34,336 nucleotides of DNA, taken from an uncultured Eubacteriales bacterium (GTDB lineage: Bacteria; Bacillota; Clostridia; Oscillospirales; Acutalibacteraceae). The position numbers and the translations under genes were made by a program. Positions 11,820 through 34,336 of the stretch are shown here, piece by piece; positions within the stretch are counted from its first letter, which is position 1, and every line of letters begins with the position of its first letter. The notes below the pieces were generated by a model. The model did not search any database. It worked only from the letters and a program-made list of their open reading frames with translations, and was not told where the DNA came from. The stretch is from positions 1-34,336 of the forward strand of contig ONAL01000016.1 of NCBI GenBank assembly GCA_900315785.1, in the 5' to 3' direction.

Positions 11820-12299
11820 TCAGAATAATCTCACCAGCGTCATAGAGGCGTTTACCTCTCCCTCGTCATCGCGAAGCATAATAGGTATGCCGCTTGTATT
11901 CACAAGGGTAATGACATCTCCCATCTGAGCGGATACGATAACCTGACCGTAGGGCACATGGTAAATTCCGCCCTCAACGGGCTGTGAGTTCTTGTAGAGT
12001 TCTATATCGACATCGTTGCCGCCCGTATAGACATAGAAGGTAACGAGATACACACCTGTTTTGTTTATGACAACATTTTCGGTTCCCGCGATATGAGTTA
12101 TACCGCCCGAGAGAGGACCGTTAGCCGAGAAGGTAAAGGCGTCGAGGTTGTCGACCGTCTGAGCAGTTGTGTCATAAATATAGGCGTATTCGCCGAAGTT
12201 GTTAACACAACCGCCGCAAGTAACAGCACAGGGGTTAAAGCCGCATTTGCACTTGCCGCAGCAGCCGCAGGAGCAGCTTGTAGTTTCTGTATTAAACAT
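11820..12299 (-). CDS. Cys-rich C1q/BclA C-terminal-like protein
   Basis: A 159-aa protein in two parts. Residues 9-31 hold nine Cys in a Gly/Lys-rich stretch (SCSCGCC, KCKC, then C24, C28, C31). Residues from about 45 to the end look like a C1q/TNF-like jelly roll of the type at the C-terminus of BclA spore-surface glycoproteins, with the blocks FSANGPLSGGITH, VVINKTGVYLVTFYVY and a final STMTLV-like strand (ASMTLVRLF). There is no signal peptide and no collagen-like Gly-X-Y segment. The Cys cluster could form disulphide crosslinks or bind metal. A spore-surface role is inferred from the fold and the nearby SASP gene. The ATG at 12299 follows AAAGGGA; the leader carries a 6-bp hairpin (12322-12336). 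Confidence 0.65.
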   Translation of the reverse strand: MFNTETTSCSCGCCGKCKCGFNPCAVTCGGCVNNFGEYAYIYDTTAQTVDNLDAFTFSANGPLSGGITHIAGTENVVINKTGVYLVTFYVYTGGNDVDIELYKNSQPVEGGIYHVPYGQVIVSAQMGDVITLVNTSGIPIMLRDDEGEVNASMTLVRLF

Positions 12300-12368
12300 A
12301 GAATATTCCCTTTCTTTGTTTGCCGTATGATACGGCTTAGTACATTCTATGCTTGTACACAATTTTGG

Positions 12369-24972: not shown

Positions 24973-24983
24973 TAGATACAGCT

Positions 24984-25015
24984 AAAGGCTGCCGCATTTG
25001 CGGCAGCCTTTTTTA
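24984..25015 (+). terminator. Intrinsic terminator after ppdK
   Basis: A perfect 12-bp stem, AAAGGCTGCCGC with GCGGCAGCCTTT (24984-24995 and 25000-25011, loop ATTT), runs into TTTTTTAC, 12 bp after the stop. The phage-derived operon converges on it; its last gene ends only 80 bp away. Confidence 0.9.
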
Positions 25016-25093
25016 CTATATATGAAACTTCTCTACCCCGCCGTTGCTAAACACCGGCGAGAGTGCCTACCGACACTTTGTTGCTGCAATGAA

Positions 25094-25573
25094 CTATGAG
25101 TCAAATTCAACCACTGCCGTCATATTGACGGGAATTATCTTCATAATCTGGCTTTCAATCCAAGCCTTCTTGTCATTTGTGAATATTCCGTTTATAGCAA
25201 CATTAATGCTATACTGCGAAGGGTGCTCGGTAAGCTGATAGCTTGCGACGCCGAAGCTTCTGAGCATTTTGGTGAAACCGCTGACCGTGAAGTCGTTCTC
25301 GTTGATGCTCTTTCTGAGTATGAGCATTTCACGTCTGTCGGCAGTATCAAAATCACTGCCTGACGTAAATCCTATCAGACTTTCACGGTCGTCAAGACCG
25401 AAGCTCTCGGAGCTCGAAATAAAGCACTCTCTGAGCACCTCGTTCGTATTATCTTTGTGTCTCTGCAGCGCTTCTGCATAAGCGGAAAGCTCAGCGAATA
25501 CGTTTGAGCCCTCGTCAAGGTCATAGAGCCCGAGCGGCAAAAGCTTCTCGAGCATTGAATCCAATACCATCAT
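25094..25573 (-). CDS. Baseplate/tail protein, XkdU or gpI-like (DUF2313)
   Basis: A 159-aa protein in the place of XkdU (PBSX) or gpI (P2), which links the baseplate wedge to the tail fibre. The N-terminus, DSMLEKLLPLGLYDLDEGSNVFAELSAYAEALQRHKD, is the usual helical DUF2313-like opening; the C-terminal half (LILRKSINENDFTVSGFTKM, SINVAINGIF) also fits. The ATG at 25573 overlaps the baseplate J stop (ATGA), and the previous codon set ends EDQS. In known phages the tail-fibre gene comes next. Here the operon ends and ppdK's terminator follows, so either the protein is terminal or the fibre is encoded elsewhere. Confidence 0.75.
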   Translation of the reverse strand: MMVLDSMLEKLLPLGLYDLDEGSNVFAELSAYAEALQRHKDNTNEVLRECFISSSESFGLDDRESLIGFTSGSDFDTADRREMLILRKSINENDFTVSGFTKMLRSFGVASYQLTEHPSQYSINVAINGIFTNDKKAWIESQIMKIIPVNMTAVVEFDS

Positions 25574-26637
25574 GACTGATCCTCGCTTATATCAATAATG
25601 TTCGGATGAGCAAAATAGGTTGCGGTGATGTTATAGTTCGAAGCATAAGCGGAACCCCAGCGGAAGCGGTAAACTCCCTCTACCTCGGAAATAACTCTGC
25701 CGACCTGAGAATCGACTATACTTTCACCGACTTCGCGCGTATTTATGAAATCAATAATCGCTTCTTCAACCTGATTCTTGACAGTGTTGAAGCTGTAGCC
25801 GTCCTCAACCTTGACGATAATTCCGATACTGACAGGAGCCGCAACGGCGGCATTTGCCCGAACGTCAAGGTTGATTCCCTTTGCCGCGTCAAGAGCGCGC
25901 TGAACAAGCATAAGTGTGTGCGAGGTAACTTCAAATCCGAAACCGCAGACGTTAACGTCTACTGTTCCTGCTCCTCTGGCTTCGGGAACGACCTTTGCGG
26001 ATCTGACATCCGGAATATTCTCTGCAATCTTCTTGTAATAGGCAGTGTTGCTGCCATCGGTGACGTTTATATATGAATCAAGCACGCGTGCTCTGAGCTC
26101 TTCGTCAGTTTCCTCGTCCTTTCCCTCATTGAATTCGCCGTAGTTAATTACCCTGTCGATACCGACAATCTGAGTAACCATAAGATTAATAGCGTTCGGA
26201 GCGACGTTTCCCGACGCTCCCGCAACCTGAGCCGTGCAGTTTGCCGAAACTCTCACGCCGCCCGCGACAAGAGTTACAGCGTTATTCGTAACAAAGGTAA
26301 TGGGGTTTGAGCCCGAGGTTGAGACGACTGTGCCCGCAGGAATATATATCGGCTCTTCCCTCGCCTCGTTAACCAGAAATGAAACTACGCCCCAAGCCTT
26401 TACGGCAGGACGGCGGCTGAGACCTCTGTCCGCGGCGTGTAAATCAAGGTATTCTCCCGTTGCTGTCTGAGCGAACATCTGGCGCTTTACAAAGTCGAGA
26501 TTGCTCTCTGCCGAAAAGAGCTCGCCCGCAAGAACCTTCATTCTGATATCAATATCCGTGCCGTCGGGCACCTCATAACCCGACAGCTCCTTGAACTTTT
26601 CCTTCATAGTTGTGAGTATTGTTTCGTAACTATCCAT
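25570..26637 (-). CDS. Baseplate J/gp47/XkdT-like protein
   Basis: A 355-aa baseplate wedge component, equivalent to P2 gpJ, Mu gp47 and PBSX XkdT, and to the gp6 role in T4. Typical features: the N-terminal TILTTMKEKFKELSGYEVPDG and DIDIRMKVLAGELF, LHAADRGLSRRPAVKAWG, the repeated extended strands IYIPAGTVVSTSGSNPITF, and GKDEETDEELRARVLDSYIN followed by IAENIPDVRSAKVVPEARGA. Length is normal for the family. The start overlaps the gp25-like gene by 8 nt. In contractile tails, J-type wedges and the gp25 protein surround the hub and nucleate the sheath, yet no sheath gene is present here. Confidence 0.92.
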   Translation of the reverse strand: MDSYETILTTMKEKFKELSGYEVPDGTDIDIRMKVLAGELFSAESNLDFVKRQMFAQTATGEYLDLHAADRGLSRRPAVKAWGVVSFLVNEAREEPIYIPAGTVVSTSGSNPITFVTNNAVTLVAGGVRVSANCTAQVAGASGNVAPNAINLMVTQIVGIDRVINYGEFNEGKDEETDEELRARVLDSYINVTDGSNTAYYKKIAENIPDVRSAKVVPEARGAGTVDVNVCGFGFEVTSHTLMLVQRALDAAKGINLDVRANAAVAAPVSIGIIVKVEDGYSFNTVKNQVEEAIIDFINTREVGESIVDSQVGRVISEVEGVYRFRWGSAYASNYNITATYFAHPNIIDISEDQS

Positions 26638-26974
26638 TGTATTCCACCTCCGTAGTCTGTTCTCTGTAGCCGTCCGAAACCGTTATGTTGAGCTTTGTGA
26701 CGCCGTTATCCGTAAAAATGTCGTTCACCTTAACGTAAACCTCGGTATCCATAAGCGCCTCGTTTATGACGCTTTCAGCCGTTGATTTGCCGTTAGCGCT
26801 GTCGGCGTTTATGCTGTTCGGCTTATGACCGAGCGTCCTGTCATACGCAAAGCTTCCGCGGGTTACGGTGAGCAGTATTTTTATTCTCTGAATTATCTCG
26901 TCAAAGCCCGAAATCATATCGGGATAGCTGTAGTTGAGAATCTGTATATCGCCGTTTTCAATTCTGATATCCAT
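26630..26974 (-). CDS. gp25/XkdS-like baseplate protein (DUF2634 type)
   Basis: A 114-aa protein between the spike and baseplate J genes, the position of XkdS in PBSX and gpW/gp25 in other contractile phages. The segment DEIIQRIKILLTVTRGSFAYDRTLG matches the family's helix-plus-loop core; the strict Glu-Pro-Arg-type motif that anchors the sheath in classical gp25 is not seen, with SFAYDR at that point. The later KSTAESVINEALMDTEVYVKVNDI and LNITVSDG complete the alpha/beta fold. The ATG directly abuts the stop of the spike gene (26975). Confidence 0.75.
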   Translation of the reverse strand: MDIRIENGDIQILNYSYPDMISGFDEIIQRIKILLTVTRGSFAYDRTLGHKPNSINADSANGKSTAESVINEALMDTEVYVKVNDIFTDNGVTKLNITVSDGYREQTTEVEYNG

Positions 26975-27307
26975 CTATATCGCCGTCCCATTCACATACA
27001 CATTGCCGTCGTTTGAGAGCTTTATGGTAGCTCCGCCCTTTGAGAATAGCATAATCTCACCCGGCTTTAAGTTCATATCCGCGGCAATAACTCCGACGCT
27101 GACGCTCTCTCCGCTCGCGTTCAGGACAACCGACCTCTCACCTTCGGGAGATACAGAGGCGATTCCATACGGAGCGGCAAGCGGAAGCTTGTTGAACTCC
27201 GACGACGCGCTAACCTCCATTTTTCCTCTGTCAGAGCCGAGAACGTCGCCTTGCTCGGCGGCGTTTTCAGTTATGGAGTTGCGCGTTATATAATCCATTA
27301 TCCACAT
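26975..27307 (-). CDS. Baseplate spike protein, gpV/gp45-like
   Basis: A 110-aa protein resembling the C-terminal half of P2 gpV and Mu gp45, the trimeric membrane-piercing spike under the hub. The diagnostic run is KLPLAAPYGIASVSPEGERS, then VGVIAADMNLKPGEIMLFSK, and finally GATIKLSNDGNVYVNG, a repeating beta pattern ending in a tip. It is shorter than gp45 and has no visible His-x-His iron site in the tip. The ATG at 27307 is 8 nt after GGAG; a second ATG at 27298 would remove three residues. The hub gene ends 2 nt upstream. Confidence 0.75.
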   Translation of the reverse strand: MWIMDYITRNSITENAAEQGDVLGSDRGKMEVSASSEFNKLPLAAPYGIASVSPEGERSVVLNASGESVSVGVIAADMNLKPGEIMLFSKGGATIKLSNDGNVYVNGTAI

Positions 27308-27309
27308 AA

Positions 27310-28236
27310 TCAGTACTCCTTCCTTAATCTGAGCGTAGTGCGCTCTCCCTCAGGACTTAGGCTGTAATAGACAGCGCTGACTCTGAGGTCTTTTCTTTTT
27401 CCAAGAATAGCGTCGTCAAGCTCCGTCTCCGCTCCGAGGGAGTTGAGCAGACGGCGCGGAGTTGAGATGTAAAGCGAATATGCTGTTCTTTCGGAATTGT
27501 TGACCATACTGTGCGGTATGTCGATGTTTCCGCTGAGACTTGCGTCAAAATATCTGACGCGGTCAATACCGCGCGCCTTAGCTTCGCTGTTCTCAATATC
27601 GAGAAAGTAGCCCTTGCTCGTGGGAAGCTTGACGTATACGTCTGACAGCGGTTTACAGCGTTTTGTATTTTCTTTTACAGAAATATAAGGTATATCACTG
27701 TCTGAGAATCTGAGCTTTCTTACGCTCTCAACTCCGCTGAAGTTTACCGTGCCGTCGCTCTCAACTCTCGGGAAAGTACCGAATGCTTTTTTGCAGAAGC
27801 TCAGGAGCACCTGCCAGCAGGTGGCGCCCTTTGATACAGCAAGACTGCCCTTGTACACTGATCCCGAAGCCTTGAAGTCTTTAATTCCGTGCGGCTTGAG
27901 GTGACGGTAGAAGATAACGCTTGCCGTCGGAAAGTAATAGTTAACGGGATGAGCCTCGTTATCGAGCAAAACCGCAGCCATACTGCGCGCTGTGATTGAA
28001 GTGACGGCGTGCTTTGTATCGAGAATGCTCTGCTGTTCATCAACAACTCCCGTAAAAACGACCTCGCCGCCGTCGAGGAGTGTAACTGCCCTGAGCTCGG
28101 GAAGCTGAGTATCGAGCGGCACAACGAGCTTGAGGTCATCTGCGGGAATGAACTCGTCCCTGTTGAGTGTCATTGAAATAATCTTGGAAAGCGTATGAAT
28201 ATTGCCGCTCGTATCTGCGCATTTTGCAATCAGCAT
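27310..28236 (-). CDS. Baseplate hub protein, XkdQ/gpD-like
   Basis: A 308-aa protein in the place of PBSX XkdQ and P2 gpD (T4 gp27 fold), which forms the trimeric central hub joining tube to spike. Seen: an N-terminal beta domain with LSKIISMTLNRDEFIPADDL and LLDGGEVVFTGVVDEQQS, then HAVTSITARSMAAVLLDNEA, a middle segment with a substrate-fold signature (GATCWQVLLSFCKKAF) and a C-terminal beta region ending VYYSLSPEGERTTLRLRKEY. Its ATG overlaps the LysM gene stop by 7 nt. No lysozyme or peptidase domain is appended. Confidence 0.82.
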   Translation of the reverse strand: MLIAKCADTSGNIHTLSKIISMTLNRDEFIPADDLKLVVPLDTQLPELRAVTLLDGGEVVFTGVVDEQQSILDTKHAVTSITARSMAAVLLDNEAHPVNYYFPTASVIFYRHLKPHGIKDFKASGSVYKGSLAVSKGATCWQVLLSFCKKAFGTFPRVESDGTVNFSGVESVRKLRFSDSDIPYISVKENTKRCKPLSDVYVKLPTSKGYFLDIENSEAKARGIDRVRYFDASLSGNIDIPHSMVNNSERTAYSLYISTPRRLLNSLGAETELDDAILGKRKDLRVSAVYYSLSPEGERTTLRLRKEY

Positions 28237-28748
28237 AAGCGAATCTCAGCTCCTCTCATCACCTCTTCAGGTCGCTTTATCTGCGGGTTGAGCTCCAAAA
28301 GCTTCTCAACCGCAACATCAAATCTATATGAAATATCCCACAAATCCTCACTTGCCGAGGTTGTGTAGAATTTTTTTACAGGGATTCCCCTGTTCTCGGG
28401 ACAATCCTCGACAAACTCAAACCTGTAGGTTATCAGCTCGGGCGTGGGCTCTGCAAGGAAATCGAGCTTTTTAAAATACGCCATTATAGGCTTGGTAAAC
28501 GGAACAGAGAGAACGCCGCTGCCGCTCTGCTCCTTAACGCGGAAGAGCCGCAGAAACTTGTACATACAGTCTGCTCCGATAATACTGCCCTCACCTGTGA
28601 TAACACGAGGGCTTCTGCCGTACTGACTGACGATATCTTTTCCGTTGACAATGCGCTGATATCTGACGTTATTCTCGGTAGTGATTTTCAGGGTTTCGGG
28701 GTTATGCTCAAACTCAAAGCCCTTAAATCTTATCATCGAATTACTCAC
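28230..28748 (-). CDS. Baseplate protein with C-terminal LysM domain, XkdP-like
   Basis: A 172-aa protein in the position of PBSX XkdP. Residues 1-120 (MIRFKGFEFEHNPETLKITT, VITGEGSIIGADCMYKFLRL) match the N-terminal part of XkdP/gp53-like proteins; residues about 125-172 (TSASEDLWDISYRFDVAVEK and LLELNPQIKR) form a LysM domain. LysM in this place connects hub and wedges or binds peptidoglycan. The likely start is the GTG at 28748, whose GTGA overlaps the stop of the 41-aa ORF; an ATG at 28736 is also possible. Confidence 0.82.
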   Translation of the reverse strand: MSNSMIRFKGFEFEHNPETLKITTENNVRYQRIVNGKDIVSQYGRSPRVITGEGSIIGADCMYKFLRLFRVKEQSGSGVLSVPFTKPIMAYFKKLDFLAEPTPELITYRFEFVEDCPENRGIPVKKFYTTSASEDLWDISYRFDVAVEKLLELNPQIKRPEEVMRGAEIRLC

Positions 28749-28870
28749 GACCTCGCCTCCGCTTCCTCGCTGAGTGCTCTGTTAAACCGACGGCTGTCAC
28801 GCTCGAATGTCTCGCTTATATCACGCGCGTTTTCCTCTGAGTGGTTGTTATAATAATCCTCGGTAATCAT
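28745..28870 (-). CDS. 41-residue charged helical peptide in the tape-measure position
   Basis: A short ORF that shares 4 nt with both neighbours (ATGA upstream, GTGA downstream) and has AAAGGAGC before its ATG, so it is very likely translated. The peptide (MITEDYYNNHSEENARDISE, then TFERDSRRFNRALSEEAEARS) is highly charged, with no Cys or Gly, and is predicted to be one helix. In PBSX-type clusters the genes between tube and LysM protein are xkdN (tail chaperone) and xkdO (tape measure, over 1000 aa). This tiny gene is all that lies there. The function is unknown; it may be a vestigial or minimal tape measure, or an adaptor. Confidence 0.7.
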   Translation of the reverse strand: MITEDYYNNHSEENARDISETFERDSRRFNRALSEEAEARS

Positions 28871-29217
28871 AAGAGCTCCTTTCTGCCTGCTGAAATTCTG
28901 ATTTTGTTAAGAACCTTTCCCCTGCTGTCCTTGTCGCTCTGAACTGAGCTAACCGAACAGCCCGAATACCTTATCGGCGCGTCGGGGTTATCAATAAGGA
29001 GAGTAAAACCCGTTTCGTCCTCGGTAAAGAATCCCGAATACGTTTCGAGATAAATCTCATAGCTTGTTTTGCCGTCTACATACGCGTACGGCTCGGAGTT
29101 GTGGAACTCATACAAGCCCTTGCTTTCACTCTTCTGTGACACGCTGAGCTTGACAAGCTTTTCGACGGGCACGCTGTCCTTATATACGCTGACCTCGTAA
29201 TTATTGGGTAAAATCAT
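28867..29217 (-). CDS. Short tail-tube-like protein
   Basis: A 116-aa protein, beta-rich throughout (NNYEVSVYKDSVPVEKLVKL, GKTSYEIYLETYSGFF, TGFTLLIDNPDAPIRYSGCS, KVLNKIRISAGRKEL). The pattern of a two-sheet sandwich with a strand pair near 'RYSGCSVSSVQS' resembles phage tube or tube-initiator proteins (gp19/XkdM, gp54/gp48 type), but I cannot confirm it. It sits where XkdM sits in PBSX. If it is a tube protein it is the only one. Its ATG shares a base with the upstream stop (TGATG), and GAGGTG is 5 nt away. Confidence 0.5.
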   Translation of the reverse strand: MILPNNYEVSVYKDSVPVEKLVKLSVSQKSESKGLYEFHNSEPYAYVDGKTSYEIYLETYSGFFTEDETGFTLLIDNPDAPIRYSGCSVSSVQSDKDSRGKVLNKIRISAGRKELL

Positions 29218-29621
29218 CAGCTCACCTCACAATAACTAAGGGTAAAGACTATATCGCGGTAAAAGGTGGAAAGATTCTTATCGTGATAAACGCGGCTGAT
29301 TTTCCAGTCCGATATATATCCGTCGCCGTTATCGCGGAATGAGTTTACAAGCGCTCTTGCCTTGTCCACCAGCTCTGCTCCCGATAATCCTGTTCCCGCG
29401 AAAAGACGGATTCTCAGCTCGGAATCTACGATTTCGATATTCTCGGAAACAAATGCCACACGCTTCTTTTCCTCAATCGGTTCAACAGCCGCCGCAGCGC
29501 CTACAACGGGTATATTTGCGGCGGCACTTCTGTAACCCTTATAAAATCGGAGCGTACCGAGAGTACCGCTCTGCTTCGCCTGTCTTACAAGGCTGTCGGT
29601 TAATGCGTTAATATCAGTCAT
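29217..29621 (-). CDS. Tail terminator-like protein
   Basis: A 134-aa protein following the connector genes, the usual place of a tail terminator or minor tail protein (gpU, XkdJ-type). The sequence fits an alpha/beta terminator: an N-terminal helix (DINALTDSLVRQAKQSG), a middle beta pair, a helix (SGAELVDKARALVNSFRD), and the terminal STFYRDIVFTLSYCEVS, which resembles the closing strand of such proteins. The ATG at 29621 overlaps the previous gene by 8 nt with a GGGGGA site upstream; the frame is open to 29669 but without a ribosome site. The assignment is by position and outline only. Confidence 0.55.
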   Translation of the reverse strand: MTDINALTDSLVRQAKQSGTLGTLRFYKGYRSAAANIPVVGAAAAVEPIEEKKRVAFVSENIEIVDSELRIRLFAGTGLSGAELVDKARALVNSFRDNGDGYISDWKISRVYHDKNLSTFYRDIVFTLSYCEVS

Positions 29622-29952
29622 AATCGTCCCCCGACTGTGCTGTGAGGGCGGATAAAACCGCCCACACATACACTGTATTTCCTTTGACCTTATACGAACC
29701 GCTGGAACGCGGATAATATGAATTCTCCGATGTTCTGATTGCGGAGCCCTGAGTCAACACAACGTCAGGCGGAAATATCGCATAATACTTGCCGATATTA
29801 GCCTTACCCGTAGGAAGTCTCTTGTTGGTATCCGTCAGACGTCTTTTGCGTTCAAGAGGCTGGATAATGCCCTTGGTTTCGTAGGGAATGCCCGAATTCA
29901 AAACCGTAACATCCTCACCGAACTTGTCGATTATTCTGTCGAGCCTTATCAT
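29614..29952 (-). CDS. Head closure/head-tail joining protein, XkdH-like
   Basis: A 112-aa protein that probably plugs or extends the portal-connector channel. It has the layout of small head-closure proteins (SPP1 gp16, XkdH): an N-terminal segment DRIIDKFGEDVTVLNSG, then a beta-barrel region with ETKGIIQPLERKRR and ANIGKYYAIFPPDVVLTQGS, and a final KVKGNTVYVWAVLSAL strand. It is coupled to the previous connector gene through an ATGA overlap. The assignment is based on order and fold outline. Confidence 0.6.
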   Translation of the reverse strand: MIRLDRIIDKFGEDVTVLNSGIPYETKGIIQPLERKRRLTDTNKRLPTGKANIGKYYAIFPPDVVLTQGSAIRTSENSYYPRSSGSYKVKGNTVYVWAVLSALTAQSGDDYD

Positions 29953-30308
29953 CCTCTCACGCTCCTGAATGTAAAATACGAACCGTCTACAAGGTCGCCG
30001 TTCTGAGCAAGCTCGCTTTTCCAGAGCTGTTCCGCTCTGTTGAGCGCTCCGCTGTCATAGGTTACGCTGAGGTCGCCTGCGCGCACCGTTCTTGTATTAT
30101 CAAAGGTATATACAAGATACCTGTAGTACGCATAAACGCCCGCGAGCGAATCGAGACGCGTGTTCTCGTCGTCGGTCGGCTCTTCCTTTGCACAAAGAGT
30201 TCTCACATAGCGTCCCGCGTCCTCAAGGATAGATGCCCACGAAAGAGCGGCGGAGCGGTCAAGTCCCGAAAGCAATATGAACCTGTCAAGAATAGTATCT
30301 AAGTCCAT
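29949..30308 (-). CDS. Head-tail connector protein
   Basis: A 119-aa, mostly helical protein directly after the capsid gene, matching the position and outline of HK97 gp6/SPP1 gp15-type adaptors, which form a ring under the portal. DLDTILDRFILLSGLDRSAA, LDSLAGVYAYYRYLVYTFDN and LNRAEQLWKSELAQNGDLVD would be the bundle helices. GAGGTGAG precedes the ATG, 11 nt after the capsid stop. Confidence 0.6.
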   Translation of the reverse strand: MDLDTILDRFILLSGLDRSAALSWASILEDAGRYVRTLCAKEEPTDDENTRLDSLAGVYAYYRYLVYTFDNTRTVRAGDLSVTYDSGALNRAEQLWKSELAQNGDLVDGSYFTFRSVRG

Positions 30309-30319
30309 ATTCTCACCTC

Positions 30320-31330
30320 TTAGTAAGAGAGCGCCTTGGAAGCCTCTTTGAAGATTTTTGCAAAGCCCGCAGTGCAGCTGATAGCCGCTCTCTCGAGCTG
30401 ACGGTCAATAAGCTTGTCGTAATCGGTTACGACGTCGCCCGCCTGTACCATTTCGAGCGAGCAATTCTTATCGAGACCGATAATCTGGTCGCCTGTGATT
30501 GCGGGAGTGTGAAGCAGAGTCGCACCGAGCGGAGTAATCATCTTGCCTGTACCGTGGAAGTTAAGACCCGCAATCGCGTCCTTCATCTCGGGAAGCGAGA
30601 GAATCTTCTTCATAGCCGCTGTGGGAGCAAGAATTGTGTTGAGCTCATAGGGAGCAAGCTCGCCCCAAAGCTTGAGAATATCGTTGTATGTAATGCCTTC
30701 GTTGCTGTCGTCAACCGTGATAACCGTGCACGCGTTGTTGTTGCCGTCACCGTTTAAGAGAACGTCAACAGCGTCCTTGAGCTGAGCTCGTCTGATATAC
30801 GCGCCAATCTGATTGAGTGTGACAGTGAAAAGGTCAAGTCTCTGGAAACGGAGCGCTTCATATGACGAAACGAGCATTCTGCCTCTCTTGTGAAGCTTAA
30901 CGAGGTTCTCCTGAGTTTTTACTACAGTCTCGGGAATCTTTGCGCCCTCGGCAACAACCTTGAGTGTCTTGTCGTCCTCGCTGGGAACAGACGCGATTGA
31001 GCGGTAATCCATACCTGAGATATTTGTAACGCTGGCTACGATATCGGGAATGATATCTGCCTGCTCCATACCCTGCTTTACCGCCTGACTTACGTACTCG
31101 GGAAAGAGCGCGGCGGAGTTAGAGGTCTGGAAGAACTTCTCAACGCAGTCGCTGCCTGCGCCCGAAACGTGGATGTCAAATCTTTTGAGCTGACGTTCAA
31201 AGGCGTCGAGACCCTCGTACTGAGTGCCGATATAGTTCTCCGACGGGTCAAGCTTTTCGAGTGTGTCGGTAAGGTTGCCATTTACCTGATACATACCCTT
31301 TTCGATTGTAATGTTTTCAAAATTTGCCAT
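30320..31330 (-). CDS. Major capsid protein (HK97 fold)
   Basis: A 336-aa protein expected to form the icosahedral head shell. Supporting features: the position after protease and cement genes, an N-terminal amphipathic arm, YVSQAVKQGMEQADIIPDIV and ISGMDYRSIASV in the E-loop region, LVKLHKRGRMLVSSYEALRF, the long spine helix around LFTVTLNQIGAYIRRAQLKD, and the P-domain run TILAPTAAMKKILSLPEM with TPLGATLLHTPAITGDQIIG. It resembles PBSX XkdG-type capsids. AGGAGGAG precedes the ATG. An encapsulin is unlikely because portal and terminase are also present. Confidence 0.82.
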   Translation of the reverse strand: MANFENITIEKGMYQVNGNLTDTLEKLDPSENYIGTQYEGLDAFERQLKRFDIHVSGAGSDCVEKFFQTSNSAALFPEYVSQAVKQGMEQADIIPDIVASVTNISGMDYRSIASVPSEDDKTLKVVAEGAKIPETVVKTQENLVKLHKRGRMLVSSYEALRFQRLDLFTVTLNQIGAYIRRAQLKDAVDVLLNGDGNNNACTVITVDDSNEGITYNDILKLWGELAPYELNTILAPTAAMKKILSLPEMKDAIAGLNFHGTGKMITPLGATLLHTPAITGDQIIGLDKNCSLEMVQAGDVVTDYDKLIDRQLERAAISCTAGFAKIFKEASKALSY

Positions 31331-31342
31331 TCTATCTCCTCC

Positions 31343-31672
31343 TTAAAGAATGAATCCGATTTTTTCGTCATCCTTATAGATGATTCTGTATTTTGTAGAG
31401 CCGCCAGGCGCAAGCTTTGTGCTTGTGGTTGTCACAAGACCGCATCTGCCGTAGTTGACATCGCCCTGATAGTCAGCCTCAACATAGCCTGAGGTCTGGA
31501 CTGCTGCGTAACCGTCTCTTACGCCGACGCAAACTCCGATGAGCTCCTGTCCCGCGTTTCCGGGAATAACATGATAGTTATCGTCAAGCTGCACAAAGTC
31601 GCCGACCTTTACGCTGCTGTTAGCTAAGAAGGTTGCGACGTTTTCGTTATAACCGTTGAAATTAATATCCAT
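31343..31672 (-). CDS. Capsid cement/decoration-like protein
   Basis: A 109-aa beta-rich protein between protease and capsid, the place of head-decoration (cement, DUF2190-like) proteins. VKVGDFVQLDDNYHVIPGNA and QELIGVCVGVRDGYAAVQTS form a small barrel pattern typical of this group. The remainder (GLVTTTSTKLAPGG, YRIIYKDDEKIGFIL) is also beta. GGAGG lies before the ATG, and the protease gene ends 10 nt upstream. It presumably binds the outer capsid surface and adds stability. Confidence 0.6.
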   Translation of the reverse strand: MDINFNGYNENVATFLANSSVKVGDFVQLDDNYHVIPGNAGQELIGVCVGVRDGYAAVQTSGYVEADYQGDVNYGRCGLVTTTSTKLAPGGSTKYRIIYKDDEKIGFIL

Positions 31673-31682
31673 AATTTACCTC

Positions 31683-32645
31683 CTAAATTCTGAACTGTGA
31701 GTTGTTGTTTTCTGCCGATGTAATATTCTGAGGCGCGAGCTGGGGAGTACGCGGAAGCTTCTTGCCTGCTCTCGCCTTATAGATTTCTTTAAGCTCGCAA
31801 AGCTCCTCAACACCGAGTGACCTTACCACGCATTTCATTGTGTGGTCTGATACCTCGGGCTGAACAATTGCGCTGTACTTGAGCACATCGCTCTCGAGCC
31901 TTGTTCTGTAGAAGGCTCCGTCAGCCGCCTGCTTCTTGAGACCGCCGAGATACGTCTTCAGATGTTCGCTGTCGGTTTTTGTCAGCGAGACAGCCTCGCC
32001 GTTTTCAATGCTTTTGAGGATTTCCTCCATAGATTTCTCCTTTCCGAAGGACTTGATAACGCCCGCGTCCTTCTGAGCGGGAACTGCCACAAAGCTGAAT
32101 TCATAAGCGTCCGTTGGGTTTACGAGCTCGCCGCAGCAGAGCTTTCCGCTGTAGCGCTCGCCCTTGATGTGAGAGCAAGAGGAAAGCTCGCTTCCGCAGA
32201 TACTGCAAAGAGTTTTGCCGACCGAGCAGCCGACGCTGACCTCACGGACTATACCGCTGTCAATCGCGTCGCGAAGCTCCAGGTTTCCCTCGCTTTTTGG
32301 CATATACGCTCTCGCCTTCAGGCGAAAGTAGTTCTCGCCCAGCGAGTTTTTCTTACCAGATATCTCTTCGACCTCGGTCGAAATAATCCTTGCGCTCTGG
32401 TTCTTTGCCGTGGGATTGTGGTCAAATATTCCTGTTTTACCGACGAAAAGCTCGCCGAGCTTTTTGAGTGAATCCACGGTGAAGCGTTCAAAATCTCTGT
32501 CGACCTCATTGTCACAGAGCACAACCGAGAAAACGTAAACCTCGTCCGCCGAAAGCTGTCTGCGGGCATAGCTGTTGATAAGCTCAAGCTCCTTCTCGCT
32601 GACAGCCGATGTTTCAGCCTTCTGTTCCTTCTTCAATATAATCAC
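31683..32645 (-). CDS. Prohead maturation protease with Cys-rich insert and scaffold-like tail
   Basis: A 320-aa protein. Residues about 35-195 look like a phage head protease: VFSVVLCDNEVDRDFERFTV, DSLKKLGELFVGKTGIFDHN (a likely catalytic His in DHN), ARIIST, and the SVGCSVG strand followed by YEFSFVAVPAQKDAG. Inside sits a Cys-rich piece (Cys147, 150, 157, His159, Cys170, 171), probably a zinc knuckle; similar inserts occur in other Clostridia phage proteases. The C-terminal 120 residues are helical and charged, like a scaffold. The start is uncertain: GTG 32645 has GGAG at 6 nt, TTG 32636 has GGTGAT nearer, and both overlap the portal gene. Confidence 0.72.
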   Translation of the reverse strand: MIILKKEQKAETSAVSEKELELINSYARRQLSADEVYVFSVVLCDNEVDRDFERFTVDSLKKLGELFVGKTGIFDHNPTAKNQSARIISTEVEEISGKKNSLGENYFRLKARAYMPKSEGNLELRDAIDSGIVREVSVGCSVGKTLCSICGSELSSCSHIKGERYSGKLCCGELVNPTDAYEFSFVAVPAQKDAGVIKSFGKEKSMEEILKSIENGEAVSLTKTDSEHLKTYLGGLKKQAADGAFYRTRLESDVLKYSAIVQPEVSDHTMKCVVRSLGVEELCELKEIYKARAGKKLPRTPQLAPQNITSAENNNSQFRI

Positions 32646-33786
32646 CTTCCTCTCCGAGCTCCGCCTCAATTTCAGCGGCTCTCGCGTTGTTCAGACGTGC
32701 CTGAGAAAGCTCGACCTCGTCCTGAAGATTAATGATATTCCACTTGATGTCGACCCCGCCGAGATAACCGTTAAGCGTAAGAAAGGTTCTGCAAATCTTA
32801 GCAATAACGGGATTGAGCAAGGCGCGGTAATACTCAAGCTCGCTTGTCAGAATGTCAGCCTGCTGCATACTCATACGCTCCGAGGTTGACCAGCTAATAC
32901 CGAGCACAAAGGGCGGAATACCGAGCTTTGCGATAATCTGCTCAAGCAGATGACGGACAGGAATATCGCAGTTGAGCACCTGATTGTCGGCTCCGATAAC
33001 CTTGACATTTACATCGCCTACGCTGATGAAGTCACAAACCTCGTCGCTCCTCATTGCTCTGCTCCATTCGTCGGCAATCTGCTGAGCCTGTTTCTTGGTA
33101 ACTGACGGAGCCGAGCTGTCAGGTTTGTAGTTTACGGAGAACCTAACGTTGCCCACTCTCTCCCAGTTCTTTTCAATTGAGTCGAAGATTCTGAGCACGA
33201 TTCTGCTCACGAACGGCAGACTTTTCAGAACTGAAGTGCCCCTGACCGTTCCGGGCTCGGGATTCATAAGTGTGGGCATTATAAGCTCCTGAAACTCCGC
33301 GGGCGTGTTATTGCCGTCGTTGAGACAGACAATCAGATTGAGCGGGCTTCCGTCGCCCTTAATGCTCACGTCCTTGAGGCTCGCGTTATAAAGCGCGTCT
33401 ACCGTGGAATTGTCACTGCTCAGGACGATTTCGCCTACAGCCTCTCCGTAGGTCAGAAGGTCGTTGATATAGGTAATGATAAAGGGGTAAATTCCGTGAT
33501 TACCGCCTGCGCAGAGGACGTTGTCAAGAAAATCCTTGAGCGGCTTTTTGGCGCGTGAATCCTCAGGGATAACCTCAAAGTCGCCGACAAGTCTGACGAT
33601 TCTGTCGAGAGCCGCGTCGATAATCGGAACTGACTGTCTGAGCGATTTATAAAGCTCAATCTCGCTGCGCCTGAGCGGAGAGTAGTTCCTGAGCAAAGGA
33701 AGCTCTCCGCGCGAGATTGAGGACTGTGGAGACGGCAGAACGGGAATTTCCTCCGTCTCTTTTTTATTTCTTTTAAAGAAATTCAT
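32614..33786 (-). CDS. Phage portal protein
   Basis: The 390-aa dodecameric channel through which DNA enters the head and to which the tail docks. Seen: the early RRSEIELYKSLRQSVPIIDA (clip/stem start), KPLKDFLDNVLCAGGNHGIY, the central TYGEAVGEIVLSSDN wing strand, the long stem helix region with RHLLEQIIAKLGIPPFVLGI, then SWSTSERMSMQQADILTSEL and RALLNPVIAKICRTFLTLNG, characteristic of portals. The ATG at 33786 has GGAGG 5 nt away; a TTG at 33798 lies inside the ribosome site. It follows the terminase stop by 23 nt. Confidence 0.85.
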   Translation of the reverse strand: MNFFKRNKKETEEIPVLPSPQSSISRGELPLLRNYSPLRRSEIELYKSLRQSVPIIDAALDRIVRLVGDFEVIPEDSRAKKPLKDFLDNVLCAGGNHGIYPFIITYINDLLTYGEAVGEIVLSSDNSTVDALYNASLKDVSIKGDGSPLNLIVCLNDGNNTPAEFQELIMPTLMNPEPGTVRGTSVLKSLPFVSRIVLRIFDSIEKNWERVGNVRFSVNYKPDSSAPSVTKKQAQQIADEWSRAMRSDEVCDFISVGDVNVKVIGADNQVLNCDIPVRHLLEQIIAKLGIPPFVLGISWSTSERMSMQQADILTSELEYYRALLNPVIAKICRTFLTLNGYLGGVDIKWNIINLQDEVELSQARLNNARAAEIEAELGEEGDYIEEGTEG

Positions 33787-33809
33787 TCTTACCTCCAATC
33801 TAAAGGCTT

Positions 33810-34336
33810 TTAGTGTCTTTTGGCGGCAATTGCGGCTACGCAGTCGCCGCTGTTAAGAATTGTGGAGACAAAGTACCTAATGTCGTCCATAGCGTGGTCG
33901 TTTTCCTTGATTGGTCTGTCCTCGCCCCTCTCGTCCCAACGATAGAGTGAGAACTCGCGGATACTGTCCGAGCAATTGTCGCAGATTTTGACCTCGCCGT
34001 TTTTGAGCGCGTTGACGGTTTTGCGTATACCGTTAACCACGTCGTTATCGGCAGGAGTTACGCTAAGCTCGCCCTTTCGCCTGATTAGCTCAATGAAGGA
34101 CGCCGCCGAAGGGTCAACAACCACAGCTCTTACCTTTCGGTTGCCGATAAGCTCGAGCAGAGCGTTGTAGTGCTCCTCGTCAGTTCTCTGATAACCCTCC
34201 CTGCGGGAATCAAAGTAGCTCTCGTCAATTCTGTACCATATACCTTCCTTAAAACCCCAAAGTCCGAAGGACGCGGGATTAACGGTGCCGTAATCGACTG
34301 AAACTACATAGTCCTCAAGCGGCCCCGAGGGAGCTT
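33810..34336 (-). CDS. Terminase large subunit, C-terminal nuclease part (window-edge partial)
   Basis: The open frame continues past the window edge, so only the last 175 residues are seen. They form the RNase H-like nuclease (Terminase_6C) of the DNA-packaging motor. All three acidic residues are visible: SVDYGTVNPASFGLW (first Asp), VVVDPSAASFIELIRRKG (second) and HAMDDIRYFVST (third). YFDSRREGYQRTDEEHYNAL is also typical of PBSX-type terminases. The ATPase half and any small terminase lie beyond 34336. An intact nuclease site suggests that DNA packaging is retained. Confidence 0.9.
   Translation of the reverse strand, partial: APSGPLEDYVVSVDYGTVNPASFGLWGFKEGIWYRIDESYFDSRREGYQRTDEEHYNALLELIGNRKVRAVVVDPSAASFIELIRRKGELSVTPADNDVVNGIRKTVNALKNGEVKICDNCSDSIREFSLYRWDERGEDRPIKENDHAMDDIRYFVSTILNSGDCVAAIAAKRH

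What the first reader, a model, noticed from the sequence alone, without database searches (positions are those of the whole stretch)
25094..34336. Intact head-plus-baseplate phage operon with no sheath, tape measure or tail fibre
The order portal-protease-cement-capsid-connectors-terminator-like-tube-like-[41 aa]-LysM-hub-spike-gp25-J-XkdU follows PBSX-type myophages. However, the 3-4 kb that normally encodes sheath, tube, chaperones and tape measure is reduced to one 116-aa and one 41-aa ORF, and the cluster stops after the XkdU-like gene. All frames are open, junctions overlap by 1-8 nt or lie within about 25 nt, and the three catalytic Asp of the terminase nuclease are intact. That argues for selection, not decay. 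The inferred product is a DNA-packaging capsid carrying a contractile-type baseplate almost directly on its portal: a domesticated particle, gene-transfer agent or killing device of a form I do not know to be described.
Basis: partly seen in the sequence, partly recalled or inferred. Interest (0 to 1): 0.85.

Follow-up and report, generated by a model that had tools for sequence, protein, structure and literature searches.

The report
Phage-like particle with dismantled tail
A block of phage genes in an uncultured gut Ruminococcus would build a DNA-filled shell with a landing plate but almost no tail, and the same kind of block is kept, usually as a single copy, in hundreds of related species, so it looks like a tamed gene-carrying particle whose tail has been taken apart several times in evolution.

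Summary
At 25094-34334 (minus strand) lies an intact head-neck-baseplate operon without a sheath; the contig end cuts its large terminase. It is not a one-off deletion. The capsid gene is present once in 91 of 100 genomes of the genus, and occurs in 184 of 298 of the family, 63 of 297 of the order and 6 of 243 of the class. Relatives in other families and a few genera of this one carry a sheath exactly between the counterparts of 29217-29669 and 28867-29217. A 93-locus tree needs at least 7 sheath changes: probably repeated loss. The 116-aa gene is the tail tube, the 150-aa gene the tail terminator; sheathless relatives fuse them (18 clear and 8 probable of 113 distinct loci; 0 of 16 sheathed), and a model of one fusion shows both folds. 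Selection is purifying (dN/dS 0.06-0.30). Best reading: a gene-transfer-agent-like particle with a one-ring, non-contractile tail, similar in kind to Faecalibacterium FpGTA (PMC12946183). Packaging and transfer are inferred.

The parts
33810..34334 (-). large terminase, C-terminal nuclease part, cut by the contig end
   Evidence: PF17289 1.4e-6, phrog_10250 6e-28; full-length 412-451 aa in nine relatives
32614..33798 (-). portal
   Evidence: phrog_30703 1.6e-109
31683..32669 (-). head protease/scaffold-position protein
   Evidence: phrog_16951 2.5e-99, no assigned function; role by position
31343..31672 (-). cement-like head protein
   Evidence: phrog_4588 5e-8
30320..31330 (-). major capsid protein
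   Evidence: phrog_3922 4.7e-98, PF25209 2.3e-15
29949..30308 (-). head-tail adaptor (p119), by position
   Evidence: no significant family hit of its own; homologue in L181 hits the phrog_541 adaptor at E 0.047 only
29614..29952 (-). stopper-position protein (p112), by position
   Evidence: no significant family hit; found in 174 of 190 loci
29217..29669 (-). tail terminator (p150)
28867..29217 (-). tail tube (p116)
   Evidence: phrog_27038 1.2e-8; profile match to tubes beside a sheath, prob 98.9, E 1.1e-17; tube fold of the fused homologue
28745..28870 (-). 41-aa remnant of a tape-measure-position protein; only the C-terminal ERDSRRF motif is kept
   Evidence: motif is the C-terminus of 54-195 aa proteins in 7 sheathed loci, some by weak hits
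28230..28748 (-). LysM / XkdP-like baseplate protein
   Evidence: PF01476 6e-4 and PF07157 0.007, both under cut-off; XkdP likeness recalled
27310..28236 (-). baseplate hub
   Evidence: phrog_177 1.7e-14
26975..27307 (-). spike/gp45-like
   Evidence: PF06890 4.4e-4, under cut-off
26630..26974 (-). gp25-like sheath initiator
   Evidence: PF10934 1.4e-6 (under cut-off), phrog_120 3e-6
25570..26637 (-). baseplate J wedge protein
   Evidence: PF04865 9e-45
25094..25573 (-). XkdU / Mu gp48-like wedge protein
   Evidence: PF10076 1e-14
24973..25093 (.). 120-bp gap before the next host gene (PPDK by look) where near relatives have the fibre-like gene

Best explanation
The cluster makes a gene-transfer-agent-like particle descended from a contractile-tailed phage. 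TerS/TerL fill a small capsid with DNA (inferred). The neck (portal, p119, p112, terminator p150) carries probably a single ring of tube (p116), on which the hub, spike and wedge ring of a contractile-type baseplate sit directly. With no sheath there is no contraction stroke; the baseplate acts as a receptor-triggered gate and DNA leaves by head pressure through a minimal tube, as in a short-tailed phage (inferred). The 41-aa protein is what remains of the tape measure: its C-terminal anchor without the length-setting body (inferred). Shown: gene content and order, single copy, purifying selection, wide spread that follows host taxonomy, homologous sheathed relatives, terminator-tube fusions. 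Inferred: particle form, packaging of host DNA, delivery.
For: One copy without internal stop in 91 of 100 congeners (48 of 50 of the best), capsid in 184 of 298 family genomes, 70 of 111 genera, and 83 of 177 genomes of another family. Shared host neighbours in 20 of 49 (downstream) and 29 of 59 (upstream) distinct close loci with enough flank, window left out. dN/dS 0.06-0.30 over the shared genes of 14 close pairs, every gene under 0.6. The 80 best of 324 IMG/VR contigs with this capsid are 2.9-30.8 kb, most 4-15 kb. Sheath in place in families f12, f22, f6 and in f1 genera g29, g79, g92, g94. Terminator-tube fusions only where the sheath is gone: 18 clear and 8 probable of 113, 0 of 16; both folds in the model. 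Terminator-fibre fusion in 7 loci without tube and baseplate. FpGTA particles: 40 nm, no visible tail, 8.4-8.9 kb DNA (PMC12946183).
Against: No particle, packaged DNA or transfer was seen for this genus. No lysis module was found: the holin near the cluster in G033 occurs in only 4 of 50 genomes, G033 included, one of them with a stop. 9 of 100 congeners lack the capsid; 7 of these are under 90% complete. No regulator is known. In the window terminator and tube are separate genes, as in 71 of 113 sheathless-baseplate loci, and in 16 of 113 no tube was recognised, so one ring is inferred from relatives. The fusion model is middling (pLDDT 74.9, pTM 0.51). Homology to FpGTA was not tested by sequence. 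Baseplate genes have clearly higher dN than head genes. The loss of the fibre in this lineage could mean decline. Short IMG/VR contigs may also be fragments.
Confidence: 0.62

Rival explanations
1. A PBSX-like killing particle: it packages host DNA but does not deliver it, and kills relatives through its baseplate.
For: Baseplate genes follow the PBSX order (recalled) and are kept under purifying selection; the FpGTA authors leave the same option open (PMC12946183, section 10).
Against: Contractile killers as known to me need the sheath, which is gone; in 25 of 93 tree rows J, gp25, gp45 and gp48 genes are not in the cluster while the head is kept, so the head seems to be the selected core.
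Confidence: 0.15
2. An ordinary defective prophage in decay, caught at a stage where frames are still open.
For: Tail genes were lost several times; the window has also lost the fibre gene; one listed copy in another family has an internal stop.
Against: One open copy in 91 of 100 congeners and capsid in 70 of 111 genera sampled, dN/dS 0.06-0.30, fusion proteins in place of separate genes.
Confidence: 0.06
3. A satellite or helper-dependent element that borrows sheath and tail from co-resident phages.
For: Head genes with an incomplete tail resemble satellites in outline.
Against: No PF04984 sheath in 20 of 20 genomes of the genus; shared host neighbourhood among close loci; terminator-tube fusion leaves little place for a long borrowed tail.
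Confidence: 0.05
4. Capsids kept for another host use (DNA storage at sporulation, decoy, phage interference), the neighbourhood with spore-like genes being a hint.
For: GerA-, SpmA- or SpmB-like genes (names by look) lie upstream in 29 of 59 distinct close loci.
Against: Other genera of the family have other neighbours (1 of 59), and terminase, portal and neck are all kept.
Confidence: 0.06

Closest known systems
FpGTA of Faecalibacterium (PMC12946183; abstract, sections 9, 10, 26 and passages read)
   Same: Gut Clostridia of the same broad group; TerS, TerL, portal, scaffold and capsid genes, with one gene between portal and capsid if accession numbers run in order (RCH50851.1, RCH50849.1; my inference); near-ubiquitous in its genus; no visible tail
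   Different: There baseplate, fibre and lysis genes form a second operon about 125 kb away in one strain; here head and baseplate are one operon, and no lysis genes were found. Sequence homology not tested (records not held)
PBSX of Bacillus subtilis (recalled; gene order only)
   Same: Portal to XkdU gene order, LysM protein, hub, gp25, J, XkdU; non-infectious and chromosomal
   Different: PBSX has sheath, long tape measure and a full contractile tail; here none found
RcGTA of Rhodobacter (PMC7296036, search listing only; otherwise recalled)
   Different: Longer non-contractile tail; here a contractile-type baseplate and almost no tail length
Mu-like myophages
   Same: gp45-, gp48- and J-type baseplate proteins
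   Different: No sheath; no replication or transposition genes seen in the window

Membership tests
Gene transfer agent | phage structural cluster fixed in a host lineage, single copy, inherited vertically | tested here: met
Gene transfer agent | kept by purifying selection | tested here: met
   14 close pairs of 102 candidates; several pairs cover only part of the cluster, one only head genes
Gene transfer agent | no replication or integration genes with the cluster | tested here: inconclusive
   none among the 18 window proteins outside the cluster given to Pfam; flanks of nine relatives judged by look only; no integrase search was run
Gene transfer agent | particles package random host DNA, in pieces smaller than needed to move the cluster | not testable with these tools
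   needs particles; reported only for other taxa (PMC12946183)
Gene transfer agent | delivers DNA to recipients | not testable with these tools
   needs an experiment
PBSX-type contractile particle | tail sheath gene | tested here: not met
PBSX-type contractile particle | baseplate set hub, gp25, J, XkdU in order | tested here: met
FpGTA | sequence homology of capsid and portal | not tested
   FpGTA records are not in the held collections; the attempt to find a Faecalibacterium genome was inconclusive
FpGTA | baseplate and lysis genes in a second, distant operon | tested here: not met
   baseplate lies in the main operon; no second J gene in G000, G033, G068
Tailocin (head-less contractile bacteriocin) | no head and packaging genes | tested here: not met
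   capsid, portal, terminase present

The most novel reading that the evidence does not exclude
Across the order an ancient domesticated phage has had its contractile tail dismantled several times by the same steps: sheath and tape-measure body deleted, terminator and tube fused so that the tube can only be one ring, then in some lineages the whole tube and baseplate deleted and the fibre fused straight onto the terminator. The sheathless baseplate works as a non-contractile, podovirus-like DNA gate, a particle type that my searches did not find described.
Probability: 0.55. Interest if true: 0.9.

Novelty: new variant of a known kind. Interest (0 to 1): 0.8.

Why it matters
A 2026 study (PMC12946183) found that capsid packaging of host DNA is common in gut Ruminococcaceae and Oscillospiraceae but named a gene cluster only for Faecalibacterium. 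The capsid of the cluster seen here is in 184 of 298 and 83 of 177 sampled genomes of two families, so it is a candidate for the genes behind such events elsewhere, and that can be tested. It also gives a natural series of tail reduction, with gene fusions that report particle geometry, bearing on how short-tailed particles can arise from contractile ones.

Tried and rejected
One-off deletion in this copy: rejected, the form is genus-wide. Sheath elsewhere in the genome: not found. Sheath regained by transfer in g29, g79, g92, g94 instead of repeated loss: the sheath tree does not place these inside the f12 group, but support is weak and branches are long, so not excluded. Baseplate moved elsewhere in lineages without it: no J hit in 33 of 37 genomes, weaker hits (E 1e-13 to 1e-39, against 1e-125 to 1e-155 in 5 of 5 controls) in 4; 12 of the 37 are congeners whose own locus I did not read, two of the four hits among them. 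Lysis module: the holin of G033 is not conserved (4 of 50). VLP virome contigs as proof of packaging: MT835508.1 looks like bacterial chromosome (ribosomal protein genes by look) around a head-type cluster; its link to the DNase-treated VLP study PMC8361208 (passages read; accessions not found in its text) is my inference from sample type and country, and contigs called phage there were chosen in ways I did not check, so this is weak. Finding Faecalibacterium by a phage Mushu transposase gave only a 78% partial hit (G1008) and one 28-base hit (G937), not conclusive. Sequence searches of the PDB with tube profiles gave only weak hits (E 0.1 and 0.45) and none of use for the terminator. Promoter-like sites near chance, terminator-like sites 16 against 9.9 expected; not used. 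Paper searches gave one close paper; absence from print is claimed only for these. One search was an empty script; one search failed on a file and was replaced. Counts first made held duplicate loci (8 pairs among 190) and took the 80 named loci for the genus alone; replace them.

Full report
What is there. The window is the whole contig G000:C35 of a 1.67-Mb, 57-contig genome, 91.5% complete. Its last 9.2 kb, minus strand, hold 16 open, tightly packed genes from the large terminase (cut by the contig end) to an XkdU/gp48-like gene. Family searches confirm terminase, portal, capsid, hub, gp25-like, gp45-like, J and gp48-like proteins, some under Pfam's own cut-offs (gp25-like, gp45-like, LysM). 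There is no sheath in the window or its genome, and none in 19 further near-complete congeners.

How widespread. The capsid is found once, without internal stops, in 91 of 100 genomes of the genus (48 of 50 of the best; two copies are incomplete). In the family it is in 184 of 298 genomes and 70 of 111 genera, in the order in 63 of 297, in a second family (f22) in 83 of 177 (one listed copy has an internal TAG, a few are split or partial), and in the class in 6 of 243, only one of them outside the order. These 80 are the nearest by capsid, not all of the window's genus: at least two belong to other genera of the family. Nine relatives read in full share the order TerL to XkdU; in some of them the tube or the 41-aa gene was too diverged for the first search, or the tube is fused to the terminator. 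Among distinct close loci, the window left out, host neighbours are shared in 20 of 49 downstream (Mfd, Prs, a nucleotidyltransferase, and Pth and PPDK by look) and in 29 of 59 upstream (GerA-, SpmA- or SpmB-like by look); in other genera of the family in 2 of 54 and 1 of 59, in other families in 0 of 8 and 0 of 16. So it was inherited in place among close kin and sits elsewhere in other genera.

Selection. In 14 close pairs (of 102 candidates; some cover part of the cluster, one member is a virome contig) dN/dS over the shared genes is 0.058-0.296, and every gene stays under 0.6, including the 41-aa gene and the tube where present. Window against its nearest relative L071 gives 0.165 but with saturated dS. 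L054 is identical to the window and adds nothing.

The missing tail. In loci of families f12, f22 and f6 and a virome contig an extra gene lies between the 150-aa and 116-aa genes; it is a sheath (L180: PF17482 4e-13, PF04984 3e-10, phrog_279 5e-45; L189 weaker). Further small genes, one zinc-finger-like by look, lie between the 116-aa gene and LysM in several of these, at the place of tape-measure chaperones (recalled). The sheath profile hits 21 of 297 order genomes and 9 of 298 family genomes; not all of these are shown to be beside the capsid, and two hits are weak. Of 182 distinct loci, 16 have the sheath in place, 113 have a baseplate without sheath, 29 lack J, gp25, gp45 and gp48 (two of these, L196 and L197, are fragmentary), and 24 are cut too early to tell. 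On a tree of TerL, portal, protease and capsid (93 loci) the sheath label needs at least 7 changes, whatever the root (7 also on 170 loci). Sheathed loci lie near the base, under a root that I chose, and again inside the window's family. Loss is the likelier direction because position and neighbours of the sheath are the same in the loci read; the sheath tree neither shows nor excludes transfer. Sheathed clusters span 11.7-13.2 kb (14 loci), sheathless ones 9.3-11.3 kb (102 loci, some duplicates).

Further reduction. In 25 of the 93 rows of the tree J, gp25, gp45 and gp48 genes were not detected; some of these keep LysM, hub or tube. Seven loci with none of these fuse the terminator directly to the fibre-like protein. 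No J gene occurs anywhere in 33 of 37 genomes of such lineages, against 5 of 5 controls with it.

Working model. Terminase and a small capsid package DNA; a neck and probably one tube ring carry a contractile-type baseplate that cannot contract; the baseplate opens on contact and DNA leaves under head pressure. Shown: gene content, conservation, selection, fusions, predicted folds of homologues. Inferred: particle shape, DNA content, delivery. Not found: lysis genes, a regulator, proof of homology to FpGTA.

Known kin. The Faecalibacterium FpGTA (PMC12946183; abstract, sections 9, 10 and 26 and passages read) gives 40-nm particles without visible tails and 8.4-8.9 kb of host DNA; its authors saw similar packaging in other Ruminococcaceae and Oscillospiraceae, including 4.6-kb pieces in Ruminococcus callidus, searched several MAGs and named a cluster only in Faecalibacterium. 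The cluster here is the same kind of element in other genera with a different, integrated tail module. Whether it is the same lineage is open, and whether R. callidus carries it was not tested.

Noticed in passing
L034:7799-8954 (G033): Holin (phrog_263 1.6e-26) and endolysin (phrog_291 1.2e-41) pair about 6 kb upstream of the cluster, with an XRE-type regulator by look nearby; the holin is in only 4 of 50 genomes of the genus.
   Followed up: partly
L047 / upstream of the cluster in G062: Short ORFs on both strands repeat STHTPLARCN / VTPRKRCVSRN, so the DNA holds a dense array of a short repeated unit; looks like a CRISPR array (not tested).
   Followed up: no
L050 (MT835508.1): A 46.7-kb record deposited as a bacteriophage looks like bacterial chromosome with ribosomal protein genes around a head-type cluster.
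   Followed up: partly
L196 (G278:C72): A second, diverged capsid copy in a genome that also has the usual cluster; no other cluster gene was detected beside it.
   Followed up: no
G768:C20:6139-7209: Only capsid relative found outside the order in the class search (E 7e-52).
   Followed up: no
window 11820-12362: ORF with a BclA C-terminal-like domain (PF18573 2.9e-8, under cut-off), possible spore-surface protein.
   Followed up: no
upstream of the cluster in G016, G020, G068: GerA-type germination and SpmA/SpmB-like spore genes (by look) next to the cluster; a link of particle production to sporulation is untested.
   Followed up: partly
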